A DNA stretch of 64,000 nucleotides from contig NZ_NNRM01000053.1 in NCBI RefSeq assembly GCF_002252525.1, positions 217,229 to 281,228 on the forward strand, read 5' to 3'. The notes under the pieces were generated by a model. It was given only the letters and a program-made list of their open reading frames with translations, made no database searches and was not told the DNA's origin. The stretch comes from Brucella pseudogrignonensis (GTDB taxonomy: Bacteria; Pseudomonadota; Alphaproteobacteria; Rhizobiales; Rhizobiaceae). The position numbers and the translations under genes are program-made. Positions 49,284 through 64,000 of the stretch are shown here, in pieces (position 1 is the stretch's first letter; each line of letters opens with the position of its first letter).

Positions 49284-49359
49284 GAGCGCGTAGCTCAGCC
49301 GGTAGAGCAACTGACTTTTAATCAGTAGGTCCAGGGTTCGAATCCCTGCGCGCTCACCA
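49284..49359 (+). tRNA. tRNA-Lys(UUU)
   Basis: This 76-base tRNA has acceptor GAGCGCG/CGCGCTC, D-arm GCTCAGCCGGTAGAGC, anticodon stem-loop CTGACTTTTAATCAG giving anticodon UUU, and T-arm CAGGGTTCGAATCCCTG, with discriminator A and encoded CCA. It is intact. The bases after its 3' end belong to the integrated element, so its 3' half is the probable attachment core, which the element would have restored on integration. Confidence 0.97.
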
Positions 49360-52490: not shown

Positions 52491-53084
52491 TTAGCGTACA
52501 AACTTGCGCCAAACCCTGCGAGAAATACGACTATAGAATGATCGAGCCCAATCTAACGACACGTCCACAATGTCGGGGGCATTGTAGCTGGTTAGTGTAT
52601 ATAGGCCAGGCAATGACCCGCGCCGAATCGTTTTGATAAGCATTCGCCCATCAGTTACTTGCACAATACAGGTTTCCCCAATCATATCTTCAGGTAAAAC
52701 CGTCTCGCCTGAATATGCTACTAGATCCCCATCCTCAAAAATGGGGAACATACTGTCGCCGCGCACAATCGCGCCCACCGTTCCCGGTGGAAGGGGGTAT
52801 TCGATATTTAGCGAATACAAGGGATCGCCATCATCGATGGGGTAAACCACGGCGCCAGCGCCAATGTATCCTAATACATCCAGTGGGTTAATGTGACCGG
52901 GCAGCGGATACCCGGTAACTTCTGAAATACGAGTGGCTTCGTCGCTGGAAAGCTTACGCACTCCGCGCTTAACATTACTAATTTTGTCTTGGCTCAAGCC
53001 GATACGATCGGCCAGTTCAGACTGAGTCAGTCCCGCAGAATTGCGAGCGTCTTCCATCCACTGAGCTGAGTATATTTTAGCCAT
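52491..53084 (-). CDS. XRE-family phage repressor with S24 peptidase domain
   Basis: The 197-aa protein has an N-terminal helix-turn-helix (SELADRIGLSQDKISNVKRG) and a C-terminal LexA/CI-like S24 domain with Ser111 in GDSMFPIFEDGD and Lys151 in RMLIKTI. Such repressors hold a prophage silent and are inactivated by RecA-stimulated self-cleavage; no clear Ala-Gly cleavage site was identified here. It is divergent from the rightward early genes over a control region with matching palindromes. Start 53084 (AAAAGG upstream) is chosen over 53099. Confidence 0.88.
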   Translation of the reverse strand: MAKIYSAQWMEDARNSAGLTQSELADRIGLSQDKISNVKRGVRKLSSDEATRISEVTGYPLPGHINPLDVLGYIGAGAVVYPIDDGDPLYSLNIEYPLPPGTVGAIVRGDSMFPIFEDGDLVAYSGETVLPEDMIGETCIVQVTDGRMLIKTIRRGSLPGLYTLTSYNAPDIVDVSLDWARSFYSRISRRVWRKFVR

Positions 53085-53091
53085 ATGGCCT

Positions 53092-53169
53092 TTTCGCATA
53101 TATTGCTCAACAAATATATTGCGAATATCGCATAATACCAGTTGACATAATTATTTGTTTATCGCATAA
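53092..53169. promoter_or_regulatory. Repressor operator region with divergent promoters
   Basis: The spacer holds a perfect 13-bp palindrome TGCGA-ATA-TCGCA (53120-53132), and the 10-mer TATCGCATAA occurs twice (53127-53136 and 53160-53169) with a further related TCGCATATA near 53094. A rightward promoter candidate is TTGACA (53142-53147) with CATAAG 17 bases later, overlapping the second site; the leftward promoter candidate TTGACT with ATTATG overlaps the same site from the other strand. This is the expected CI-type switch. Confidence 0.65.
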
Positions 53170-57259: not shown

Positions 57260-57417
57260 ACGCCGTCACGCCAGCCGGTAATGGCACCGGGAAGATTGCA
57301 CGTTCGTTGGCTCTCACGGGGTTTACCCTTGGGCTTTTACTGGTCGTGGCAGGCTTCATTTTCTGGAACGCAGTGCTGCCTTTCTACGGCCTGCTTTATT
57401 TGTGGGGTGGCCAATGA
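57256..57417 (+). CDS. Small single-pass membrane protein (53 aa)
   Basis: GTG-started gene overlapping the previous stop. The product has a basic lead (NGTGKIARSLALTG), a membrane segment FTLGLLLVVAGFIFW and an aromatic tail (LPFYGLLYLWGGQ). The stop overlaps the next gene (ATGA). Confidence 0.65.
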   Translation: MNAVTPAGNGTGKIARSLALTGFTLGLLLVVAGFIFWNAVLPFYGLLYLWGGQ

Positions 57418-57518
57418 CCTACCCACGGTTTCCCACGCTGGCCACATCGGCGCCAGTCTGGCTGATCGGCTCGATCATCCTGCTGGCCATGATGATCGTC
57501 ATTCAACTTACCCACTAA
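57414..57518 (+). CDS. Small single-pass membrane protein (34 aa)
   Basis: The product MTYPRFPTLATSAPVWLIGS continues as IILLAMMIVIQLTH, one membrane segment. It is the third of three overlapping membrane microgenes. Overlap and the shared hydrophobic design support a real gene despite the length. Confidence 0.55.
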   Translation: MTYPRFPTLATSAPVWLIGSIILLAMMIVIQLTH

Positions 57519-57538
57519 CCACACACGAGGAGTTACTT

Positions 57539-58312
57539 ATGGCTATCAGCCTATCAAGCCTCAAATCGACGAAGAGAAACGACCCGCCGGTCATGCTTTT
57601 GTATGGCGTCGACGGCATCGGCAAGACCAGCCTTGCATCTGAGTTTCCAGATCCGATTTATCTGGCCACAGAAGGCGAGCGTCCGCCATCTGATATCGAA
57701 ATGGCAACGCCAGGCACAATTGAAAGCTTCGAAGATTTGCTCAACATTATCGGCGAACTGCTGACTGTTGAGCATGATCGGCGCACCGTGATTATCGACA
57801 GTGCCGACGGCCTCGAACCGCTTGTCTGGGCTGCGACATGTGCCCGCCTTGGTATCAACAGCATTGAGGAAGCTGGGTTCGGTAAAGGCTACGTGGAAGC
57901 CGACACCGAATGGAATGAGCTCATGTCGGCCCTGTCTGCGCTCGCTCAAGCCGGCATTTATGTGGTCATCCTCGCTCACCCCGAGATTGTGCGCTTCGAC
58001 AGCCCGACGACAGATCCATATTCGAGGTACCAGCCGAAACTGCACAAGCGCGCTAATGCACTTGTTCGAGAAAAGTCTGATGTTGTGGCGTTCATGAACT
58101 ACCGAGTTTCCATCAAGGAAAAGGAAGTCGCGCGCCAGACAAAGGTCGCCCATGCCGAGGGCGGCAAAGAGCGCCAGATCCATCTGAATGAAGGCGCAGG
58201 CTTCAACGCCAAGAACCGGTATTCAATGCCCGACGCCGTTCCATACCGCAAAGGGCAGGGCTTCACCGAGCTGGCGAAGTACTGGCCGGACACGATGCAG
58301 GAGGTTGCTTGA
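57539..58312 (+). CDS. Phage P-loop ATPase (Sak4/RecA-like)
   Basis: The 257-aa protein has Walker A YGVDGIGKTSLA (about residues 22-33) and Walker B RTVIIDSADGL (about 80-90). It matches phage AAA_24-type ATP-binding proteins, often Sak4-like single-strand annealing recombinases that work with an SSB. CACGAGGAG (57524-57532) sets this start; a longer frame from 57281 is out. The neighbours (DUF669, clamp, nuclease, helicase) make a replication/recombination role likely. Confidence 0.85.
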   Translation: MAISLSSLKSTKRNDPPVMLLYGVDGIGKTSLASEFPDPIYLATEGERPPSDIEMATPGTIESFEDLLNIIGELLTVEHDRRTVIIDSADGLEPLVWAATCARLGINSIEEAGFGKGYVEADTEWNELMSALSALAQAGIYVVILAHPEIVRFDSPTTDPYSRYQPKLHKRANALVREKSDVVAFMNYRVSIKEKEVARQTKVAHAEGGKERQIHLNEGAGFNAKNRYSMPDAVPYRKGQGFTELAKYWPDTMQEVA

Positions 58313-58554
58313 TGGAAAAAGCACTAGCTGGACTGGTTACCGTTGCCGCCATTCTTTTCTTTGCACCGCTGATCGGCGTTCTCTTTGGCGCGTTTTCGGG
58401 ATGGGTTGTCGGCTTCTTCTTCACTGAAACAGTGCAGGCATTCCTCACCGCTTTAAGCATCAATGCTGGACACATGTCACTTTGGCAGATCGGCGCTGCG
58501 CTTGGCTTCATCGGAGGGTTTGTCCGACCCACCGTGTTTCGCGCAAAGTCTTAA
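58312..58554 (+). CDS. Small two-segment membrane protein
   Basis: The 80-aa protein has a first hydrophobic run (LAGLVTVAAILFFAPLIGVL, continuing to VVGFFF) and a second near the C terminus (IGAALGFIGGFV). It overlaps the ATPase stop (TGATG). The function is unknown. Confidence 0.6.
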   Translation: MEKALAGLVTVAAILFFAPLIGVLFGAFSGWVVGFFFTETVQAFLTALSINAGHMSLWQIGAALGFIGGFVRPTVFRAKS

Positions 58555-58594
58555 CCTGCGCATTCACCACACCACCAACACGAGGAACTAACAC

Positions 58595-59158
58595 ATGGCG
58601 AGACTTGGAACGGCGTTTGACGCCACCCAACACGACACGACGCAGTCGGACTATTCCGAACTGCCGAACGGCACATACAAGATGGAAATCGAGGCGGCCG
58701 ACGTGGTGCCGACTTCGACCGGCAGCGGCACCATTCTGAAAACAACGCTGAAGGTGCTCGAGCCCGCTGAATATGCTGATCGCAAGCTGTTCAACAACTA
58801 CAACATTGAGAACAAGAACCCGACCGCTCAGGAAATTGGTCAAAGGCAATTTGCCAGCCTTTGCCGCGCGCTCGAAATGTCTTCGGTAGAAGACACCGAC
58901 GATCTGCTCTTTAAGTCGTTCACGGTGCGAGTAGCCCTCGGCAAGCCTTCAAAGGACGGCCAGTATCCGGCGCGTGCCGAGATCAAGAAATACTTCTTCC
59001 CTGACGAAAACAACGTGCCTGAGCCGAGCATTGACGCTCAACAGCCTGCGGCGGCAGCGCAGCGATCAGCCAATGACAACCGCCCTGCAGCGGCAAACAA
59101 CAACAAGCCATCGCAGCCTGCAAAAGCTGCGGGAAGCCGTCCTTGGTCTAAGGGCTAA
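58595..59158 (+). CDS. DUF669-family phage protein (possible SSB partner)
   Basis: The 187-aa protein has the DUF669 pattern LPNGTYKMEIEAADVVPTS, then KLFNNYNIENKNPTAQEIGQ and RQFASLCRALEM, and a flexible Ala/Asn-rich acidic tail (PAAAAQRSANDNRPAAANNN). DUF669 proteins are encoded beside phage recombinases and may bind single-stranded DNA. CACGAGGAA (58579-58587) precedes the start. Confidence 0.85.
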   Translation: MARLGTAFDATQHDTTQSDYSELPNGTYKMEIEAADVVPTSTGSGTILKTTLKVLEPAEYADRKLFNNYNIENKNPTAQEIGQRQFASLCRALEMSSVEDTDDLLFKSFTVRVALGKPSKDGQYPARAEIKKYFFPDENNVPEPSIDAQQPAAAAQRSANDNRPAAANNNKPSQPAKAAGSRPWSKG

Positions 59159-59215
59159 TCTAACCAAGGCGCGGTCACCAGCCGTGCCTGCCACCACCAA
59201 CACGAGGAGAAACCC

Positions 59216-60274
59216 ATGCGGGTAACGCTTGACCGAGCGCAGCTTGCGCACGCCTTGTCGACCGTGACAAAGGCAGTTGAGGCCAGAACGACAATCCCAA
59301 TCCTTGGCAACGTGCTCTTGTCCGCGGACAAAGGACAGCTGAGCATCACCGGTACAAATCTTGATCTGGAAATCAGCACCAGCTTGCCTGTTCTGGATAG
59401 CCAGGACGGCACTGTCACGGTTGCGGGTAAGCTGCTTGCTGACATTTCGAAGCGCGCCACAAGTGACATTAGCTTGGAAGCCGACGGCAATCATCTGGTC
59501 GTTAAATCTGGCAAAAGCCGTTTCAAGCTGGATACGCTGCCAGCCGCTGACTTCCCGTCCTTCAATCACGGAAGCTTCGACACCACGATCGAGTTCGATC
59601 TCGCTTCGCTCGTGCAGGAAGTGCAGTTCGCTGTCAGCACCGAAGAAACCCGCTATTACCTGAACGGCGTATTTCTGGAAGCCAAGGACGGCCATATCGT
59701 TGCCACGGCAACAGACGGGCATCGTCTCGCGTCAACACGTATCGAGCAGGAATCGTCGTTTGCGCCTGTTATTCTTCCTAACAAACTTCTGTCATTGCTG
59801 CCGACAGGCGTCGTGTCGGTTTCGCTTTCGTCAAACAAGGTAATGGTCGAGAGGGGTTCGACTGTCATCGTGTCGAAGCTCGTCGACGGCACATATCCGG
59901 ATTACGAGCGCGTTATTCCCAAGCCATCAGAGCGTGTCGCTACCCTGTCGGCTAAAGCACTGCGCGAAGCAGTCGGCCGCACATCAGTTATTGCAAGCGA
60001 GCGGGGGCGTGCTGTGCGCTTCTCGTTTGCTTCGGATGCTCTGACGCTGAACGTCGCTAATCCAGATCGCGGTGACGCGACCGAGGAAATGGAGGTCAAT
60101 TTCAGTAGCGAGCCACTGACGATTGGTTTCAATGGCCAGTATGTCACGGAACTCATGGCGGCGTTTAGTGCGGATGAAGTCACCATGTCGATGGCGGATT
60201 CTGGTTCGCCTGCGCTTATCACGTCAGCCGGTCGGCCGGGATACAGGTGCGTAATTATGCCGATGCGGGTGTAG
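59216..60274 (+). CDS. dnaN: Phage-encoded DNA polymerase III beta subunit (sliding clamp)
   Basis: The 352-aa clamp has three repeats: MRVTLDRAQLAHALSTVTKA at the start, LDTLPAADFPSF and EETRYYLNGVFLEAKDG in the middle, and FNGQYVTELMAAFSADEVTM then PALITSAGRPGYRCVIMPMR at the end. It is a little shorter than host DnaN (about 370 aa). A self-encoded clamp suggests the element recruits or replaces host replisome functions. The leader CACGAGGAG (59201-59209) sets the start. Confidence 0.93.
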   Translation: MRVTLDRAQLAHALSTVTKAVEARTTIPILGNVLLSADKGQLSITGTNLDLEISTSLPVLDSQDGTVTVAGKLLADISKRATSDISLEADGNHLVVKSGKSRFKLDTLPAADFPSFNHGSFDTTIEFDLASLVQEVQFAVSTEETRYYLNGVFLEAKDGHIVATATDGHRLASTRIEQESSFAPVILPNKLLSLLPTGVVSVSLSSNKVMVERGSTVIVSKLVDGTYPDYERVIPKPSERVATLSAKALREAVGRTSVIASERGRAVRFSFASDALTLNVANPDRGDATEEMEVNFSSEPLTIGFNGQYVTELMAAFSADEVTMSMADSGSPALITSAGRPGYRCVIMPMRV

Positions 60275-60277
60275 ACC

Positions 60278-61204
60278 GTGGCACCACTCCCCAAACCACA
60301 GTCCACAACCGTCGGCGCGATTTATGCCGCTTACGAGGCCCAGGCGAAATCCTGGGACTCGTGGGGCATCAGCGTGGGCGAGGCGGGCGCAGAATGCGAC
60401 AGGGCGCTTTGGTATGGCTTCAGGTGGGCTTCGGCCCACGAGGTGCATAGCGGCCGTCAGCTGCGCTTGTTTGAAACGGGTAACATTGAAGAAGACCGGC
60501 TCGTCGCTGATCTCGAGAGCATCGGCGTCGACGTTTACGGGCAGCAAGACAAGATCCGGCTTGTGTCGGGCTTTGTGCGCGGCAAGTGCGACGGTAAGGC
60601 AATGAATGTGCCGGAGGCGTCGAAGACAGAGCACCTACTAGAGTTTAAATCGAGCAATGCCAAGGGCTTCGCGCTGATTGTTAAGGACGGCTGCCAGAAA
60701 GCAAAGCCGTTGCACTATGCGCAGTGTCAGCTTGGAATGCATGCCTTCGGTTTAAGCCGGTGCCTTTATCTGGTGTCGTGCAAGGACAGCGACAGCCTCT
60801 ATTCAGAGCGCATCGAATACGATCTGGAATTCTGCTTACGGCTCGTTGCTCGCTGCGAACGCATCGTATTTTCAGACGCGCCTCCGAGCAGAATTAGCGA
60901 AAACCCGGAGTTCTTTGGATGCATGTTCTGCAAGCACAAAGCTGTCTGCCATCATGAGGCACAGCCGCGTGTGAACTGCCGCACATGCCTTCATGCTCAG
61001 CCTGAGAGCGGCGGCGATTGCCATATCTCATGCGCACGATGGGCAAAGCCTTTGTCGATCGATGAACAGCGTGACGGCTGCCCAGCGCATTTGTACCTAC
61101 CGGGCATGGTGAATGGTGAGCAGATCGATGTCGATGAGGAGGCTGAGACGATCACTTATCGCATGAAAAGTGGGGAGGTTTGGGTGGATGGGGCTAAAGG
61201 TTAG
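60278..61204 (+). CDS. PD-(D/E)XK nuclease with Cys-rich C terminus
   Basis: The 308-aa protein starts at a GTG 3 bases after the clamp stop. The nuclease core is GFVRGKCDGK (Asp) and HLLEFKSSNAKGF (Glu-x-Lys), with a helical part KPLHYAQCQLGMHAFGLSRC. The C-terminal third has several cysteines (GCMFCKHKAVCHHEAQPRVN, then CRTCLHAQ, CHISC), as in the Fe-S or zinc tails of Cas4/AddB-type exonucleases. It is likely the recombination exonuclease of the module. Confidence 0.82.
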   Translation: MAPLPKPQSTTVGAIYAAYEAQAKSWDSWGISVGEAGAECDRALWYGFRWASAHEVHSGRQLRLFETGNIEEDRLVADLESIGVDVYGQQDKIRLVSGFVRGKCDGKAMNVPEASKTEHLLEFKSSNAKGFALIVKDGCQKAKPLHYAQCQLGMHAFGLSRCLYLVSCKDSDSLYSERIEYDLEFCLRLVARCERIVFSDAPPSRISENPEFFGCMFCKHKAVCHHEAQPRVNCRTCLHAQPESGGDCHISCARWAKPLSIDEQRDGCPAHLYLPGMVNGEQIDVDEEAETITYRMKSGEVWVDGAKG

Positions 61205-61788
61205 GACCAGTATTGAGAGAGCTGTTTTTGATGTTCGTCAGCGCTTTTGATGAGTTTATCAGCTAAGTAAATCGGAGTTGCTATCGCAGCCTCAAAATCC
61301 TGTCGATGTGGATGATCTTCGACGACTTTCATGCATAAAAACTCAAGTCTTATAATATCATCTCTCAAGCATGAAGGCAAAACATCGGGCCAACTATCCA
61401 CAATCATCGGGTCAAAAGATGGCGTTGTAAATATAGGGTAGTCACTTTCTGAGGATGCCTTATAAAACCATCTTTCCTTGTAGTTTATGACGCCGACAGC
61501 ATACGATCGAATTGCACATAACACGTTAATCTCCTTGATGAATGACCGTCTAATCGCCGCCACATGCTGCGTCCGATTAGCATCTAACTGCTGCTTTGCA
61601 ACAAGAACAGCGATCAGTACCGGGACGCCGGTCAATAAGGTTCCGTAAGTTCCTCCCAGCACGACTAATGCCTCAATGACGGTATCTTCTGTCGCAACCA
61701 GCCAACCCAAGATGAGGCAGCAGAAAGCGACGTAACTCACCGTCACGACATACAGAACCACCGTCCAAAATCTTTCATTTCCAGACAA
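61201..61788 (-). CDS. Membrane protein of unknown function, inverted in the early operon
   Basis: The 195-aa protein has two membrane segments (about residues 9-31 and 42-63) and a soluble C-terminal domain of about 125 residues (LDANRTQHVAAIRRSFIKEI, LRDDIIRLEFLCMKVVEDHP). It is oriented against the surrounding replication genes and its codons look more AT-rich. Single inverted genes in a phage operon are often morons, expressed from the prophage for host benefit or phage exclusion; the role is inference. Its 3' end overlaps the nuclease stop by 4 bases. Confidence 0.65.
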   Translation of the reverse strand: MSGNERFWTVVLYVVTVSYVAFCCLILGWLVATEDTVIEALVVLGGTYGTLLTGVPVLIAVLVAKQQLDANRTQHVAAIRRSFIKEINVLCAIRSYAVGVINYKERWFYKASSESDYPIFTTPSFDPMIVDSWPDVLPSCLRDDIIRLEFLCMKVVEDHPHRQDFEAAIATPIYLADKLIKSADEHQKQLSQYWS

Positions 61789-61803: not shown

Positions 61804-63561
61804 ATGCTAACCTTACGAAACTACCAGTCAGAAGCAATAGACGCCGTGTTCGACTATTGGCAAGAGGAGGCGGGCAATCCGCTTGTTGATCTTGCGACGG
61901 GCTGCGGCAAGTCGTTGGTTATGGCATCTCTGATCCAGCGCCTCGTTGAGGGCTGGCCCGATATGCGCGTGATGGTCGTTACTCACGTCGCGGAGCTTAT
62001 CGAACAGAATTATCTGGAATTGCTTGGCGTTTGGCCATTTGCACCTGCAGGCATCTATTCGGCTGGTTTGGGTCGTCGTGATGCGCGCAGTCAGATTGTT
62101 TTTGCAGGCATTCAGACTGTTCACAACAAGGCGGCACAGATTGGACACGTCGACGTCCTTATGGTCGACGAGTGCCACCTGATCCCGATCAACAGCAACA
62201 CGATGTATCGCAAGTTCATTGACGCGCTGCTCGAGATCAATCCGGACATGAAAATCCTTGGCCTGACTACTACGCCTTATCGGCTGGATAGCGGTCGCTT
62301 GGATGAGGGCGCGGATCGCCTCTTTGACCAGATTGTCTACACCTACGGAGTTGCTGATGGCATCCGAGACGGGTTCCTTGCTCCGCTGACGAGCAAACCA
62401 ACGGCAACAGAATACGACGTTAAAGGCGTCGGGCGGCTTGGCGGAGATTACAAGCAGCGCGCGCTGGAAGAGGCAATCAATCGCACTGACCTTAATGATG
62501 CTGTGGTTTCTGAGATCATCGCAAAGGGCGCTGATCGTCGCTCCTGGCTTTGTTTCTGCGCCGGCGTAAAGGCTGCGCTGGACGTGCGCGACGTATTTAG
62601 ATCCCGCGGAATTACATGCGAGGCTGTAACGGGCGATACGTCGAAGGAAGAACGCCGCCGCATCCTTGAGGACTTCAAAGCATACCGAATCCAGTGCGTT
62701 ACGAACAATTCAGTTCTTACGACAGGATTCAATCATAAGGGTGTTGATCTAATTGCATTTATGCGCCCGACCTTATCCCTGAGCTTGTACGTCCAAATGG
62801 CTGGGCGTGGCACTCGCCCGCTCTATAAGGTAGGTGCGCCACTGGATACTGTTGAGGAGCGGCTTGCTGCTATCTCGGCAGGCCCTAAACGTAATTGCCT
62901 TGTTCTGGATTTCGCGAAACTCGTCGATCGGCATGGTCCTGTCGACATGGTCGAGCCGAAAGCACCAAGCGCTGGCAACGGTGAGCCGCCAATCAAGATC
63001 TGCCCGACAGTGCCAGACGACAACGGGGCGGTCGGTTGCGGTGAGAAGGTGCACATCTCGCTGATGAAGTGCCCATGCTGCGGCTATGACTTCCCGCCAA
63101 ATGAGGATGAGAAGCTAACCCGGCAGGCCGCTGACGTTCCGATTGTCAGCACCGCAGAAGCAGAGTGGCGCAAAGTGACAGGTCGGACGTTTCACTTTCA
63201 CGAAGGTAAGGGCGACAAGCCGCCGTCGGTTAAGTGCAGCTACATCGCTGGATATACGCAGATCAACGAATGGCTTTGTCCTCAGCACACTGGTTTCGCA
63301 CAAACCAAGGCGCATAGATGGTGGACGCAGCACGGAGGCCAGCGGCCGTTTCCGAAGACGGTAATGGAATGGCTTGAACGCCAGCGTGAGTTGCTTACCA
63401 CCGACGAAATCAGTGTCGTTCCAAACGGCAAATACTGGAATGTGAAAGACGTGCGGGCAGGCCTTAGTCTTGAAGCAGACAATGACAACGTGCCGGAGCC
63501 AGCGAACGACAATGTGTCCGTTGGTCTATCTGAGATGTTGGACGACGATATTCCGTTTTGA
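61804..63561 (+). CDS. Phage DEAD/DEAH-box helicase (SF2)
   Basis: The 585-aa protein has motif I ATGCGKSL (about 31-38), motif II VDECH, motif III LTTTPYR, and motifs V/VI in NSVLTTGFNHKGVDLIAFMR and MAGRGTRP. A C-terminal zinc-binding segment (VGCGEKVHISLMKCPCCGYD) and a further domain (GRTFHFHEGKGDKPPSVKCS) follow, as in phage helicases that open replication origins. It is the last gene seen in the early operon. GC-rich, ending DNDNVPEPANDN, DDDIPF. Confidence 0.92.
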   Translation: MLTLRNYQSEAIDAVFDYWQEEAGNPLVDLATGCGKSLVMASLIQRLVEGWPDMRVMVVTHVAELIEQNYLELLGVWPFAPAGIYSAGLGRRDARSQIVFAGIQTVHNKAAQIGHVDVLMVDECHLIPINSNTMYRKFIDALLEINPDMKILGLTTTPYRLDSGRLDEGADRLFDQIVYTYGVADGIRDGFLAPLTSKPTATEYDVKGVGRLGGDYKQRALEEAINRTDLNDAVVSEIIAKGADRRSWLCFCAGVKAALDVRDVFRSRGITCEAVTGDTSKEERRRILEDFKAYRIQCVTNNSVLTTGFNHKGVDLIAFMRPTLSLSLYVQMAGRGTRPLYKVGAPLDTVEERLAAISAGPKRNCLVLDFAKLVDRHGPVDMVEPKAPSAGNGEPPIKICPTVPDDNGAVGCGEKVHISLMKCPCCGYDFPPNEDEKLTRQAADVPIVSTAEAEWRKVTGRTFHFHEGKGDKPPSVKCSYIAGYTQINEWLCPQHTGFAQTKAHRWWTQHGGQRPFPKTVMEWLERQRELLTTDEISVVPNGKYWNVKDVRAGLSLEADNDNVPEPANDNVSVGLSEMLDDDIPF

Positions 63562-63581
63562 TGGATCTAGATAGAAGCTCC

Positions 63582-63712
63582 AAAAAACAAGAAAGCCCGC
63601 TGCACTGGGAGGAGGAGTGTGCAACGGGCTGATCTGGAAAGCGCGACTGGGAGGAGGAGTGCCGCGCTTCGAGTTCAGTCTCTGGGAGGAGGAGTGAGAC
63701 TGAACAAGCCGA
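63582..63712 (-). ncRNA. Putative alpha-r14/NfeR1-like sRNA with three anti-Shine-Dalgarno loops
   Basis: On the minus strand three successive hairpins (stems 63673-63681/63697-63705, 63639-63645/63663-63669, 63594-63604/63620-63630) have unrelated stem sequences but the same 15-base loop CACTCCTCCTCCCAG. The last hairpin is followed by TTCTTGTTTTTT, a Rho-independent terminator ending near 63582. Candidate promoter elements TTGTAA and CTATCT lie near 63743 and 63721. This equals the alpha-r14 family of rhizobial trans-acting sRNAs (NfeR1 in Sinorhizobium), which carry redundant CCUCCUCCC motifs; the name is from memory. Confidence 0.75.
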
Positions 63713-63793
63713 AGATAGGTAGCTGGTATGATGATTACAATGGGCGATGATGCACATCAGTTATGCAGCATATGCATGGCCCTAAAAATGGAA

Positions 63794-63829
63794 AACCGCC
63801 CGGCAGCGCAGAAGCGCGCGCAGGCGGTC
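63794..63829. other. Strong hairpin near the right edge
   Basis: ACCGCC (63796-63801) pairs with GGCGGT and an inner GCGC pairs with GCGC around AGAA, with bulges. On the minus strand it is followed by TTTTCCATTTTT and could terminate leftward transcripts; on the plus strand only CTTGT follows. Confidence 0.45.
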
Positions 63830-63944
63830 TTGTCCTCCCCGACGACGATCGTTTAGCAGTATTGATTTAGTAAAGCAACAAGTACCGATAAATACATAAT
63901 CCCACAAGGTTAGTGGTATTTGATTTGTTCTTATGAGTACATGA

Positions 63945-64000
63945 ATGGCCCAGCGTTCTTCTTCAGAAAAGGCCCGTATCGCGCTTGGGCGGGGGGGCTT
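63945..64000 (+). CDS. Possible partial gene at the window end
   Basis: From ATG 63945 an open frame runs to the edge and reads MAQRSSSEKARIALGRGG. An alternative start at 63941 lies in another frame. There is not enough sequence to classify it. The preceding 180 bases are AT-rich and gene-free. Confidence 0.3.
   Translation, partial: MAQRSSSEKARIALGRGG

What the first reader, a model, noticed from the sequence alone, without database searches (positions are those of the whole stretch)
63582..63712. Element-encoded sRNA with three identical anti-Shine-Dalgarno loops
Three adjacent hairpins have different, internally complementary stems but an identical 15-base loop. Conserved loop plus changing stems is strong evidence of selection on structured RNA. 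On the minus strand the loop reads CACUCCUCCUCCCAG, an anti-Shine-Dalgarno motif, and the third hairpin doubles as a terminator. The design matches the alpha-r14/NfeR1 sRNA family known from rhizobial chromosomes and plasmids. A copy inside a phage-like element next to its early operon suggests that the element controls translation of its own or host mRNAs.
Basis: partly seen in the sequence, partly recalled or inferred. Interest (0 to 1): 0.88.

Follow-up and report, generated by a model that had tools for sequence, protein, structure and literature searches.

The report
Prophage-borne copy of host regulatory RNA
A virus dormant in the chromosome of an Ochrobactrum-type bacterium carries its own copy of a known bacterial regulatory RNA, together with what looks like the host's control switch for it, suggesting that such viruses have borrowed, probably more than once, a host tool for switching off bacterial genes.

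Summary
On the minus strand at 63590-63709, three stable hairpins carry the same 15-base loop CACUCCUCCUCCCAG. The stretch matches Rfam ar14 (RF02344) at 81.5 bits (cut-off 58.8). It lies in an integrated tailed prophage of about 62 kb in a tRNA-Lys gene, tail to tail with the phage helicase.

New here: the gene is on a 408-bp cassette (63562-63969) absent from an otherwise collinear relative. The cassette is 75-80% identical to two other ar14 loci of the same genome, promoter region included. In IMG/VR, 40 of 63 stretches with the triple motif have it at this spot, all 40 convergent with the helicase and with a LysR-type box upstream (31 of 40 fit the published VtlR box exactly). Two phage lineages hold it on opposite sides of a second conserved hairpin, so it was probably captured twice. 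Stems covary (99.0% of pair cells standard; 10 of 31 pairs changed on both sides).

Most likely it is a trans-acting anti-Shine-Dalgarno sRNA, run by the host's regulator, that silences host mRNAs in the lysogen. Transcription, regulation and targets are untested; most close relatives lack it. The RNA is an ordinary ar14 member; its repeated capture by phages is the new part.

The parts
63590..63709 (-). ar14-family sRNA gene (three hairpins with identical anti-SD loops)
   Evidence: Rfam RF02344, 81.5 bits, E 4e-13, full model; fold z -6.9
63673..63705 (-). hairpin 1, loop copy 63682-63696
   Evidence: 5 of 10 pairs changed on both sides among the 17 copies
63639..63669 (-). hairpin 2, loop copy 63647-63661
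   Evidence: 1 of 9 pairs changed on both sides, 3 on one side
63594..63630 (-). hairpin 3 = intrinsic terminator, loop copy 63605-63619, U-rich tract at 63582-63593
   Evidence: 4 of 12 pairs changed on both sides
63713..63742 (-). sigma70-type promoter: -35-like CATTGTA (63736-63742), N17, -10-like CTATCT (63713-63718)
   Evidence: spacing as in the published NfeR1 promoter CTTAGAC-N17-CTATAT (passages of PMC10746234); TTG of the -35 is invariant in the 29 aligned copies and the -10 region strongly conserved; the generic E. coli-type scan found no promoter
63751..63766 (-). LysR-type box GCATAACTGATGTGCA, fits the published VtlR box GCAT-N3-TG-N3-T
   Evidence: a GCAT-N8-TGC-type box in 40 of 40 helicase-linked IMG/VR copies, exact VtlR form in 31 of 40, against 34 of 2000 random 110-base stretches; box from passages of PMC7486931; binding not tested
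63795..63840 (-). conserved terminator-like hairpin preceded by GGGGAGGA (possible end of a further short RNA)
   Evidence: no function shown
63562..63969 (.). 408-bp accessory cassette (ends good to about a base) carrying the sRNA and its promoter
   Evidence: G014 (L026) runs from the helicase stop into the sequence matching window 63970-63996; collinearity continues for 1.1 kb in L217 against L110
63973..64000 (-). C-rich-loop hairpin (second candidate sRNA), cut by the contig end; contig C41 begins inside it
61804..63561 (+). phage helicase, convergent neighbour
   Evidence: phrog_16 1.2e-91, ResIII/Helicase_C
57281..61204 (+). rest of the early/replication operon: Sak4-like protein, DUF669/SSB-like protein, DnaN-like clamp, Cas4-like exonuclease
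52491..53099 (-). phage CI-type repressor (HTH; S24-like part below Pfam's cut-off)
49284..49359 (+). tRNA-Lys = integration site; its 3' end (32 bases, 1 mismatch) recurs at G000:C41:47809-47840 next to an integrase

Best explanation
It is an ar14-family (NfeR1-like) trans-acting sRNA gene that a temperate phage took from its host's genome together with its promoter. Shown by sequence: family membership, selection on the fold and loops, close relation of the cassette to host loci, position in a prophage, retention of a LysR-type box. Inferred: in the lysogen the host regulator VtlR/LsrB switches it on; the three CUCCUCCUCCC loops pair with strong Shine-Dalgarno sequences and block translation or destabilise mRNAs for nutrient uptake and metabolism; this added copy (the genome has six others) shifts host physiology in a way that helps the lysogen or the prophage.
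For: ar14 at 81.5 bits against a 58.8 cut-off. Three exact loops, none in shuffles. Covariation in 17 distinct copies: 99.0% of 526 cells paired, 10 of 31 pairs changed on both sides, 0 of 500 shuffles, slid controls at most 45%. Cassette presence/absence and 75-80% identity to host copies L002 and L005 including upstream DNA. Seven copies in the genome, this one included; 35 of 35 genus genomes carry ar14. LysR-type box in 40 of 40 helicase-linked phage copies, exact published VtlR form in 31 of 40 and in the window (box from passages of PMC7486931). NfeR1 in S. meliloti is activated by LsrB and silences ntrB and two ABC-transporter mRNAs through these loops (passages of PMC10746234). Complementary start sites: 24 hits in the genome (two inside ar14, one site twice) against 3 reversed controls; 3 of the 15 with an ORF over 100 aa are ABC-transporter parts.
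Against: No expression data of any kind. In the genus set ar14 sits beside 3 of 17 long helicase matches (L024, L031, L032), plus one broken helicase (L043), and within the 1.5-kb flanks fetched beside none of the six with 87-98% helicase identity, L025-L030. The IMG/VR count has no such denominator, because that scan asked for the motif. The 40 IMG/VR copies hold only 14 distinct RNA sequences, so they are not 40 independent cases. The -35 match is weak and a generic promoter scan found nothing. Nine of 40 boxes miss the exact VtlR form. The target list is a pattern search only.
Confidence: 0.62

Rival explanations
1. Passenger: the host sRNA cluster was picked up by recombination and is carried along, transcribed but without benefit to phage or lysogen.
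For: Absent from most close relatives in the genus set; six other copies of the family already exist in the genome; one copy (L043, broken helicase) has a changed base in loop 1.
Against: Probably captured twice into the same gap behind the helicase; pairing, loops, terminator and regulatory box kept while stems diverge.
Confidence: 0.2
2. Phage-directed regulator: the sRNA acts on the phage's own mRNAs (early operon or lysis/lysogeny genes), timing the phage programme.
For: Convergent with the helicase in 40 of 40 linked IMG/VR stretches, the third loop 31-183 bases from the end of the helicase match; a different phage contig (L070) has ar14 beside an endolysin.
Against: In the prophage only two start sites match the loops over 8 bases, both on minus-strand ORFs and one inside the SRAP-like ORF, and three over 7; a collinear relative lacks it; box and promoter are of host type.
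Confidence: 0.11
3. Anti-sRNA device: read-through of the early operon copies the plus strand of the cassette, giving three GGGAGGAGGAG loops that soak up the host's ar14 RNAs after induction (compare the AgvB and CrfA anti-sRNAs).
For: The two genes are tail to tail and the plus strand has no T run after the hairpins, so read-through is possible; five of the six other ar14 copies of the genome hold the complementary CCTCCTCCC, three times in four of them and once in L006; L007 has none.
Against: Pairing is better kept on the minus strand (99.0% against 90.9%), and the promoter, box and terminator are all minus-strand; no transcript known.
Confidence: 0.05
4. Only a transcription terminator or barrier between convergent operons, not a regulatory RNA.
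For: Hairpin 3 with its U tract is a plausible terminator.
Against: Full three-hairpin ar14 match; identical loops with covarying stems in all three hairpins; own promoter-like sequence and box.
Confidence: 0.02

Closest known systems
ar14 / NfeR1 (SmelA075 and SmelA099 groups), Rfam RF02344
   Same: Three hairpins, CCUCCUCCC loops, LysR-type box upstream, several copies per genome.
   Different: This copy lies in an integrated tailed prophage on an accessory cassette. A search of the NfeR1 paper (PMC10746234) and of the SmelA075 paper (PMC3927594) for words beginning with 'phage' gave 0 hits in each.
CcsR1 (CCUCCUCCC-motif stress RNA), Rfam RF02791
   Same: Same loop motif; weak match over two of the hairpins.
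   Different: 25.5 bits against a 65.3 cut-off: not a member.
AbcR1/AbcR2 sRNAs of Rhizobiales (VtlR/LsrB regulon)
   Same: Same regulator type, and ABC transporters as targets (abstracts and passages).
   Different: No AbcR-type Rfam match at this locus.
Prophage sRNAs such as AgvB, Esr41 and SprY
   Same: Phage-encoded RNAs that alter host regulation (passages of the review PMC12197685).
   Different: As described there, AgvB mimics targets to inhibit a host sRNA and SprY sponges RNAIII; this one is itself a copy of a host sRNA with a host-type promoter.

Membership tests
ar14 (RF02344) | Covariance-model score above the curated cut-off | tested here: met
   81.5 against 58.8 bits, model positions 1-123 of 123
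ar14 (RF02344) | Three hairpins, each with CCUCCUCCC in the loop | tested here: met
ar14 (RF02344) | Stem sequences vary while pairing is kept | tested here: met
   99.0% of 526 cells paired, 10 of 31 pairs changed on both sides
ar14 (RF02344) | Third hairpin is a Rho-independent terminator (feature recalled) | tested here: met
   by sequence: 12-bp stem plus U-rich tract; termination itself not measured
ar14 (RF02344) | Alphaproteobacterial sigma70 promoter CTTAGAC-N17-CTATAT | tested here: inconclusive
   CATTGTA-N17-CTATCT: 3 of 7 and 5 of 6 positions, exact spacing; generic scan negative
ar14 (RF02344) | Discrete transcript acting on mRNAs | not testable with these tools
   no expression data available
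VtlR/LsrB regulon | Box GCAT-N3-TG-N3-T upstream of the promoter | tested here: met
   GCATAACTGATGT within 63751-63766; exact in 31 of 40 linked IMG/VR copies
VtlR/LsrB regulon | Regulator binds and activates | not testable with these tools
   needs a binding or reporter assay; the regulator gene itself was not looked for in this genome
CcsR1 (RF02791) | Covariance-model score above the curated cut-off | tested here: not met
   25.5 against 65.3 bits
Integrated tailed prophage (carrier element) | att repeat in a tRNA gene, integrase, repressor, terminase | tested here: met
   tRNA-Lys 3' end repeated, Phage_integrase, CI-like repressor, terminase large subunit; the element spans two contigs

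The most novel reading that the evidence does not exclude
Phages of this bacterial group carry a host-derived two-RNA island: the ar14 anti-SD sRNA plus a separate C-rich-loop RNA (loop CCCAAGCCCCCCGCCC, changing stems, no Rfam match where scanned). It has been captured at least twice, in two different gene orders, into the same gap behind the helicase, and is driven by the host's VtlR/LsrB-type regulator. The phage would thus ride on the host's nutrient/stress circuit to reset uptake and metabolism in the lysogen, with the C-rich RNA as partner or antagonist of ar14.
Probability: 0.3. Interest if true: 0.7.

Novelty: new member of a known kind. Interest (0 to 1): 0.52.

Why it matters
Each of the 35 genomes of this genus set has 3 to 8 ar14 matches, and why so many copies exist is not known to me. 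If phages carry and spread working copies, copy number becomes partly a matter of phage traffic, and a temperate phage would be steering host translation with the host's own RNA and, probably, the host's own regulator. Whether ar14 RNAs matter to such phages is testable in rhizobial laboratory systems. The neighbouring C-rich-loop hairpin, with ar14 motifs within 1.5 kb at 23 of 27 strong loci examined, is a candidate for a new RNA family.

Tried and rejected
Plasmid origin: no match of the cassette in 72,556 plasmid records at E 1e-5. Copies in named phages: six records, chosen by helicase similarity (five) or a chance-level loop match (one), hold no ar14 above cut-off; Rhizobium phage RHph_Y1_11 has a two-hairpin match below cut-off (40.3 bits) inside an ORF, two others have chance-level scores of 11-12 bits; the RHph_Y1_11 stretch was found in no other phage record.

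Chance or repeat explanation: of the 63 IMG/VR stretches with the triple motif, 40 are helicase-linked. Of the other 23, I ran Rfam on 7: five have ar14 above cut-off (L065, L067, L070, L086, L089), L077 and L102 do not. The remaining 16 mostly look like simple repeats or have poor stems and were not run. I did not settle whether L065, L067, L086 and L089 are phage or host-flank DNA.

Tree: 81 copies, with 24 of the 40 helicase-linked IMG/VR copies and not all copies of the genus genomes (only listed matches of 11 relatives were fetched). Clade B 0.953, clade A 0.989, B with L188 and L206 0.315, with L002 as well 0.99, but the joint node of A and B is only 0.448, so 'captured twice' rests mainly on gene order.

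The pair count left out L043, whose first loop has one changed base, because my pattern asked for three exact motifs.

Sponge idea for the GGGGAGGA hairpin at 63795-63840: the GGAGG part lies in a stem in several copies and is lost in L143 while the stem is kept; not pursued. The G-rich strand of the C-rich hairpin as an RNA that pairs with ar14: dropped because odd cells are mostly G-U on the C-rich strand (9 G-U, 3 A-C, 2 other).

Paper searches for phage-borne ar14 or CCUCCUCCC RNAs turned up none in what was listed. The library is open-access only, so this is not proof of absence from print. The original ar14 paper (del Val and colleagues) is recalled, not read. Of the papers cited I saw passages only (AbcR papers also as listed abstracts); of PMC12559287 (CrfA) the abstract and passages.

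Full report
OBSERVATION. On the minus strand the 15-base loop CACTCCTCCTCCCAG occurs three times (63605-63619, 63647-63661, 63682-63696) and nowhere else in the window, even with one mismatch; 100 dinucleotide shuffles gave no match. The stems differ and pair (-53.1 kcal/mol, z -6.9, 0 of 200 shuffles as good). The third hairpin is followed by a U-rich tract on the minus strand only. Against 4227 Rfam families the stretch 63590-63709 is ar14, RF02344, 81.5 bits (cut-off 58.8), E 4e-13, over the full model.

CARRIER. To the left lies a phage early region: CI-type repressor (52491-53099, minus), Sak4-like protein, DUF669/SSB-like protein, DnaN-like clamp, Cas4-like exonuclease and a helicase (61804-63561). 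The contig (C48) ends with the window, inside a G run. Contig C41 starts in the same hairpin and goes on with an exonuclease, helicase-like and methyltransferase genes, primase and terminase large subunit. The last 32 bases of tRNA-Lys plus CCA (window 49328-49359) recur with one mismatch at C41:47809-47840, beside a phage integrase. So the element is an integrated tailed prophage of about 62 kb (14.6 kb in the window, 47.8 kb in C41); that the two contigs are neighbours is inferred from the shared hairpin and the repeat. The nearest named phages by helicase are Rhizobium phage RHph_TM3_3_14B (71%), Sinorhizobium phages AP-16-3 and NV1.1.1 (57% and 55%), RHph_X2_26 (56%) and Rhizobium phage 16-3 (44%). 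With 5.5 Mb it is of the large-genome environmental type (inference).

AN ACCESSORY, HOST-RELATED CASSETTE. In genome G014 the helicase aligns to its stop (window 63561) and the alignment resumes at window 63970 with no gap in G014, so 63562-63969 (408 bp, to about a base) is a presence/absence segment; against IMG/VR relative L110 the collinearity of G014 goes on for 1.1 kb. Within it, 63576-63915 is 75% identical to host copy L002, and 63583-63838 is 80% identical to host copy L005 (beside an AI-2E-type transporter and a TonB heme receptor), upstream DNA included. The genome has seven ar14 copies above cut-off, this one included; 35 of 35 genomes of the genus set have some above cut-off, 3 to 8 matches each at E 0.001 (control genomes 0 of 14).

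SPREAD IN PHAGES. A scan of IMG/VR for three CCTCCTCCC motifs with ar14 spacing gave 63 stretches. In 40 of 63 the helicase is adjacent, and in 40 of 40 the RNA is convergent with it and has a GCAT-N8-TGC-type box upstream. The 40 hold 14 distinct RNA sequences. They form two groups: A (18 stretches, helicase 55-58% identical to the window's) and B (22 stretches, 92-97% apart from one partial match at 65%). In a tree of 81 copies, B (0.953) falls in a group with host copies L188, L206 and L002 (0.99; 0.315 without L002), and A (0.989) joins host copy L169 (0.869); the joint node is weak (0.448). In all 18 of A the ar14 lies on one side of a conserved second hairpin; in 21 of B on the other (in L069 the hairpin was not seen). 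Two ar14-less relatives (G014, G012) have that hairpin directly behind the helicase; others, such as L025 and L113, have neither. The two orders match two orders at other host loci: L166, L207 and L169 like A; L002, L145, L148, L149, L192, L188 and L206 like B. Two captures are the simplest reading. A third phage type, L070, has ar14 (72 bits) beside an endolysin-like gene and near a tail fibre gene.

AGAINST: most relatives in the genus set lack it. There, 17 matches cover most of the helicase; ar14 is beside three (L024, L031, L032) and beside one broken helicase (L043, with one changed base in loop 1). The six with 87-98% helicase identity (L025-L030) have none in the 1.5-kb flanks fetched. 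None of the six named phage records examined has ar14 above cut-off.

SELECTION AND STRAND. In 17 distinct copies (15 from helicase-linked loci including the window's, plus host loci L188 and L206; L043 left out), 99.0% of 526 pair cells are standard and 10 of 31 pairs have changes on both sides (mean 6.0 in shuffles, 0 of 500 as high); covariation score 0.272 against 0.177; slid controls pair at most 45%. One measure, further pair types, was reached by 9 of 500 shuffles. Read as minus there are 44 G-U cells and 1 A-C, so minus is the RNA strand (99.0% against 90.9%).

PROMOTER AND REGULATOR. Upstream: CATTGTA-N17-CTATCT, laid out like the NfeR1 promoter CTTAGAC-N17-CTATAT (passages of PMC10746234), though the -35 fits at only 3 of 7 and a generic scan found no promoter. 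Further up, 63751-63766 reads GCATAACTGATGTGCA, fitting the VtlR box GCAT-N3-TG-N3-T (passages of PMC7486931). The exact form is present in 31 of 40 linked IMG/VR copies, the rest having AG for TG; 34 of 2000 random 110-base stretches of the window's minus strand hold it. In S. meliloti LsrB binds a comparable site and activates NfeR1, which silences ntrB and two ABC-transporter mRNAs through the three loops (passages). That this copy is under VtlR/LsrB is inferred.

TARGETS. GGAGGAGG 3-10 bases before ATG gives 24 hits in the genome against 3 for the reversed pattern; two are ar14 genes themselves and two are one site with two ATGs. Of the 15 sites with an ORF over 100 aa, three are ABC-transporter parts (ATPase, binding protein, permease), one a sigma54 activator, one a sensor kinase, one a GntR regulator, the rest mostly metabolic or unknown. 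In the prophage, among ORFs of 60 aa or more, two match over 8 bases and three over 7; none is verified as a gene start and one of the 8-base matches lies inside the SRAP-like ORF. This favours host targets but is only complementarity.

SECOND HAIRPIN. The neighbour (63973-64000, cut) has, read as minus, loop CCCAAGCCCCCCGCCC and a stem that changes with pairing kept: 20 sequences, 97.7% of 220 cells, 14 cells changed on both sides (0 of 500 shuffles). Two other measures are no better than shuffles: 3 pairs changed on both sides (90 of 500) and 7 further pair types (361 of 500). Model R1 matches 32 of 35 genus genomes at E 0.01 and 5 of 151 sampled family genomes at E 0.001, three of those from the genus. 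Of the 31 strongest genus matches 27 were fetched as loci, and 23 of these have at least two ar14-type motifs within 1.5 kb. A weak 66-67-base match occurs in 25 of 35 genomes; the own-genome one (L218) has the same loop on a different stem. No Rfam match in L002, which holds one copy. It is a candidate RNA family; transcription is unknown.

VERDICT. The RNA is a plain ar14 member. Its repeated capture by prophages with promoter and box is, as far as the searches go, not described. Most likely it adds a host-controlled dose of an anti-SD regulator in the lysogen (0.62 for that mechanism; identity as ar14 about 0.97).

Noticed in passing
window 63973-64000 (minus), continued at G000:C41:1: Hairpin with conserved C-rich loop CCCAAGCCCCCCGCCC and changing stems; 23 of 27 strong loci examined have ar14 motifs within 1.5 kb; no Rfam match in L002, the copy scanned. 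Its G run probably caused the contig break.
   Followed up: partly
window 63795-63840 (minus): Conserved terminator-like hairpin preceded by GGGGAGGA, upstream of ar14 in several host loci and both phage lineages; may end another short RNA.
   Followed up: partly
L019:1501-1605 (Rhizobium phage RHph_Y1_11, 97437-97541): Two ar14-like hairpins (40.3 bits, below cut-off) inside an annotated 69-aa ORF; the two loop copies lie in different reading frames; no other phage record holds the stretch.
   Followed up: partly
L070:3533-3648: ar14 above cut-off (72 bits) beside an endolysin-like gene and near a tail fibre gene in an IMG/VR contig outside the helicase group.
   Followed up: partly
L067:757-879 and 1035-1157: Two tandem ar14 copies (107.8 and 109.2 bits) near one end of the fetched stretch of an IMG/VR contig; phage or host flank not settled.
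   Followed up: no
L166 and L207 (G002, G034): Divergent pair of ar14 genes about 0.6 kb apart with the C-rich hairpin beside one of them; similar pairs in several genus genomes.
   Followed up: no
L007 (own genome, C36:42566-42680): ar14 copy above cut-off (68.4 bits) with shortened loops and no exact CCTCCTCCC; L006 has one exact motif.
   Followed up: no
window 61201-61788 (minus): 195-aa ORF (TTG start) with long hydrophobic stretches by eye, on the opposite strand inside the early operon between the exonuclease and the helicase.
   Followed up: no
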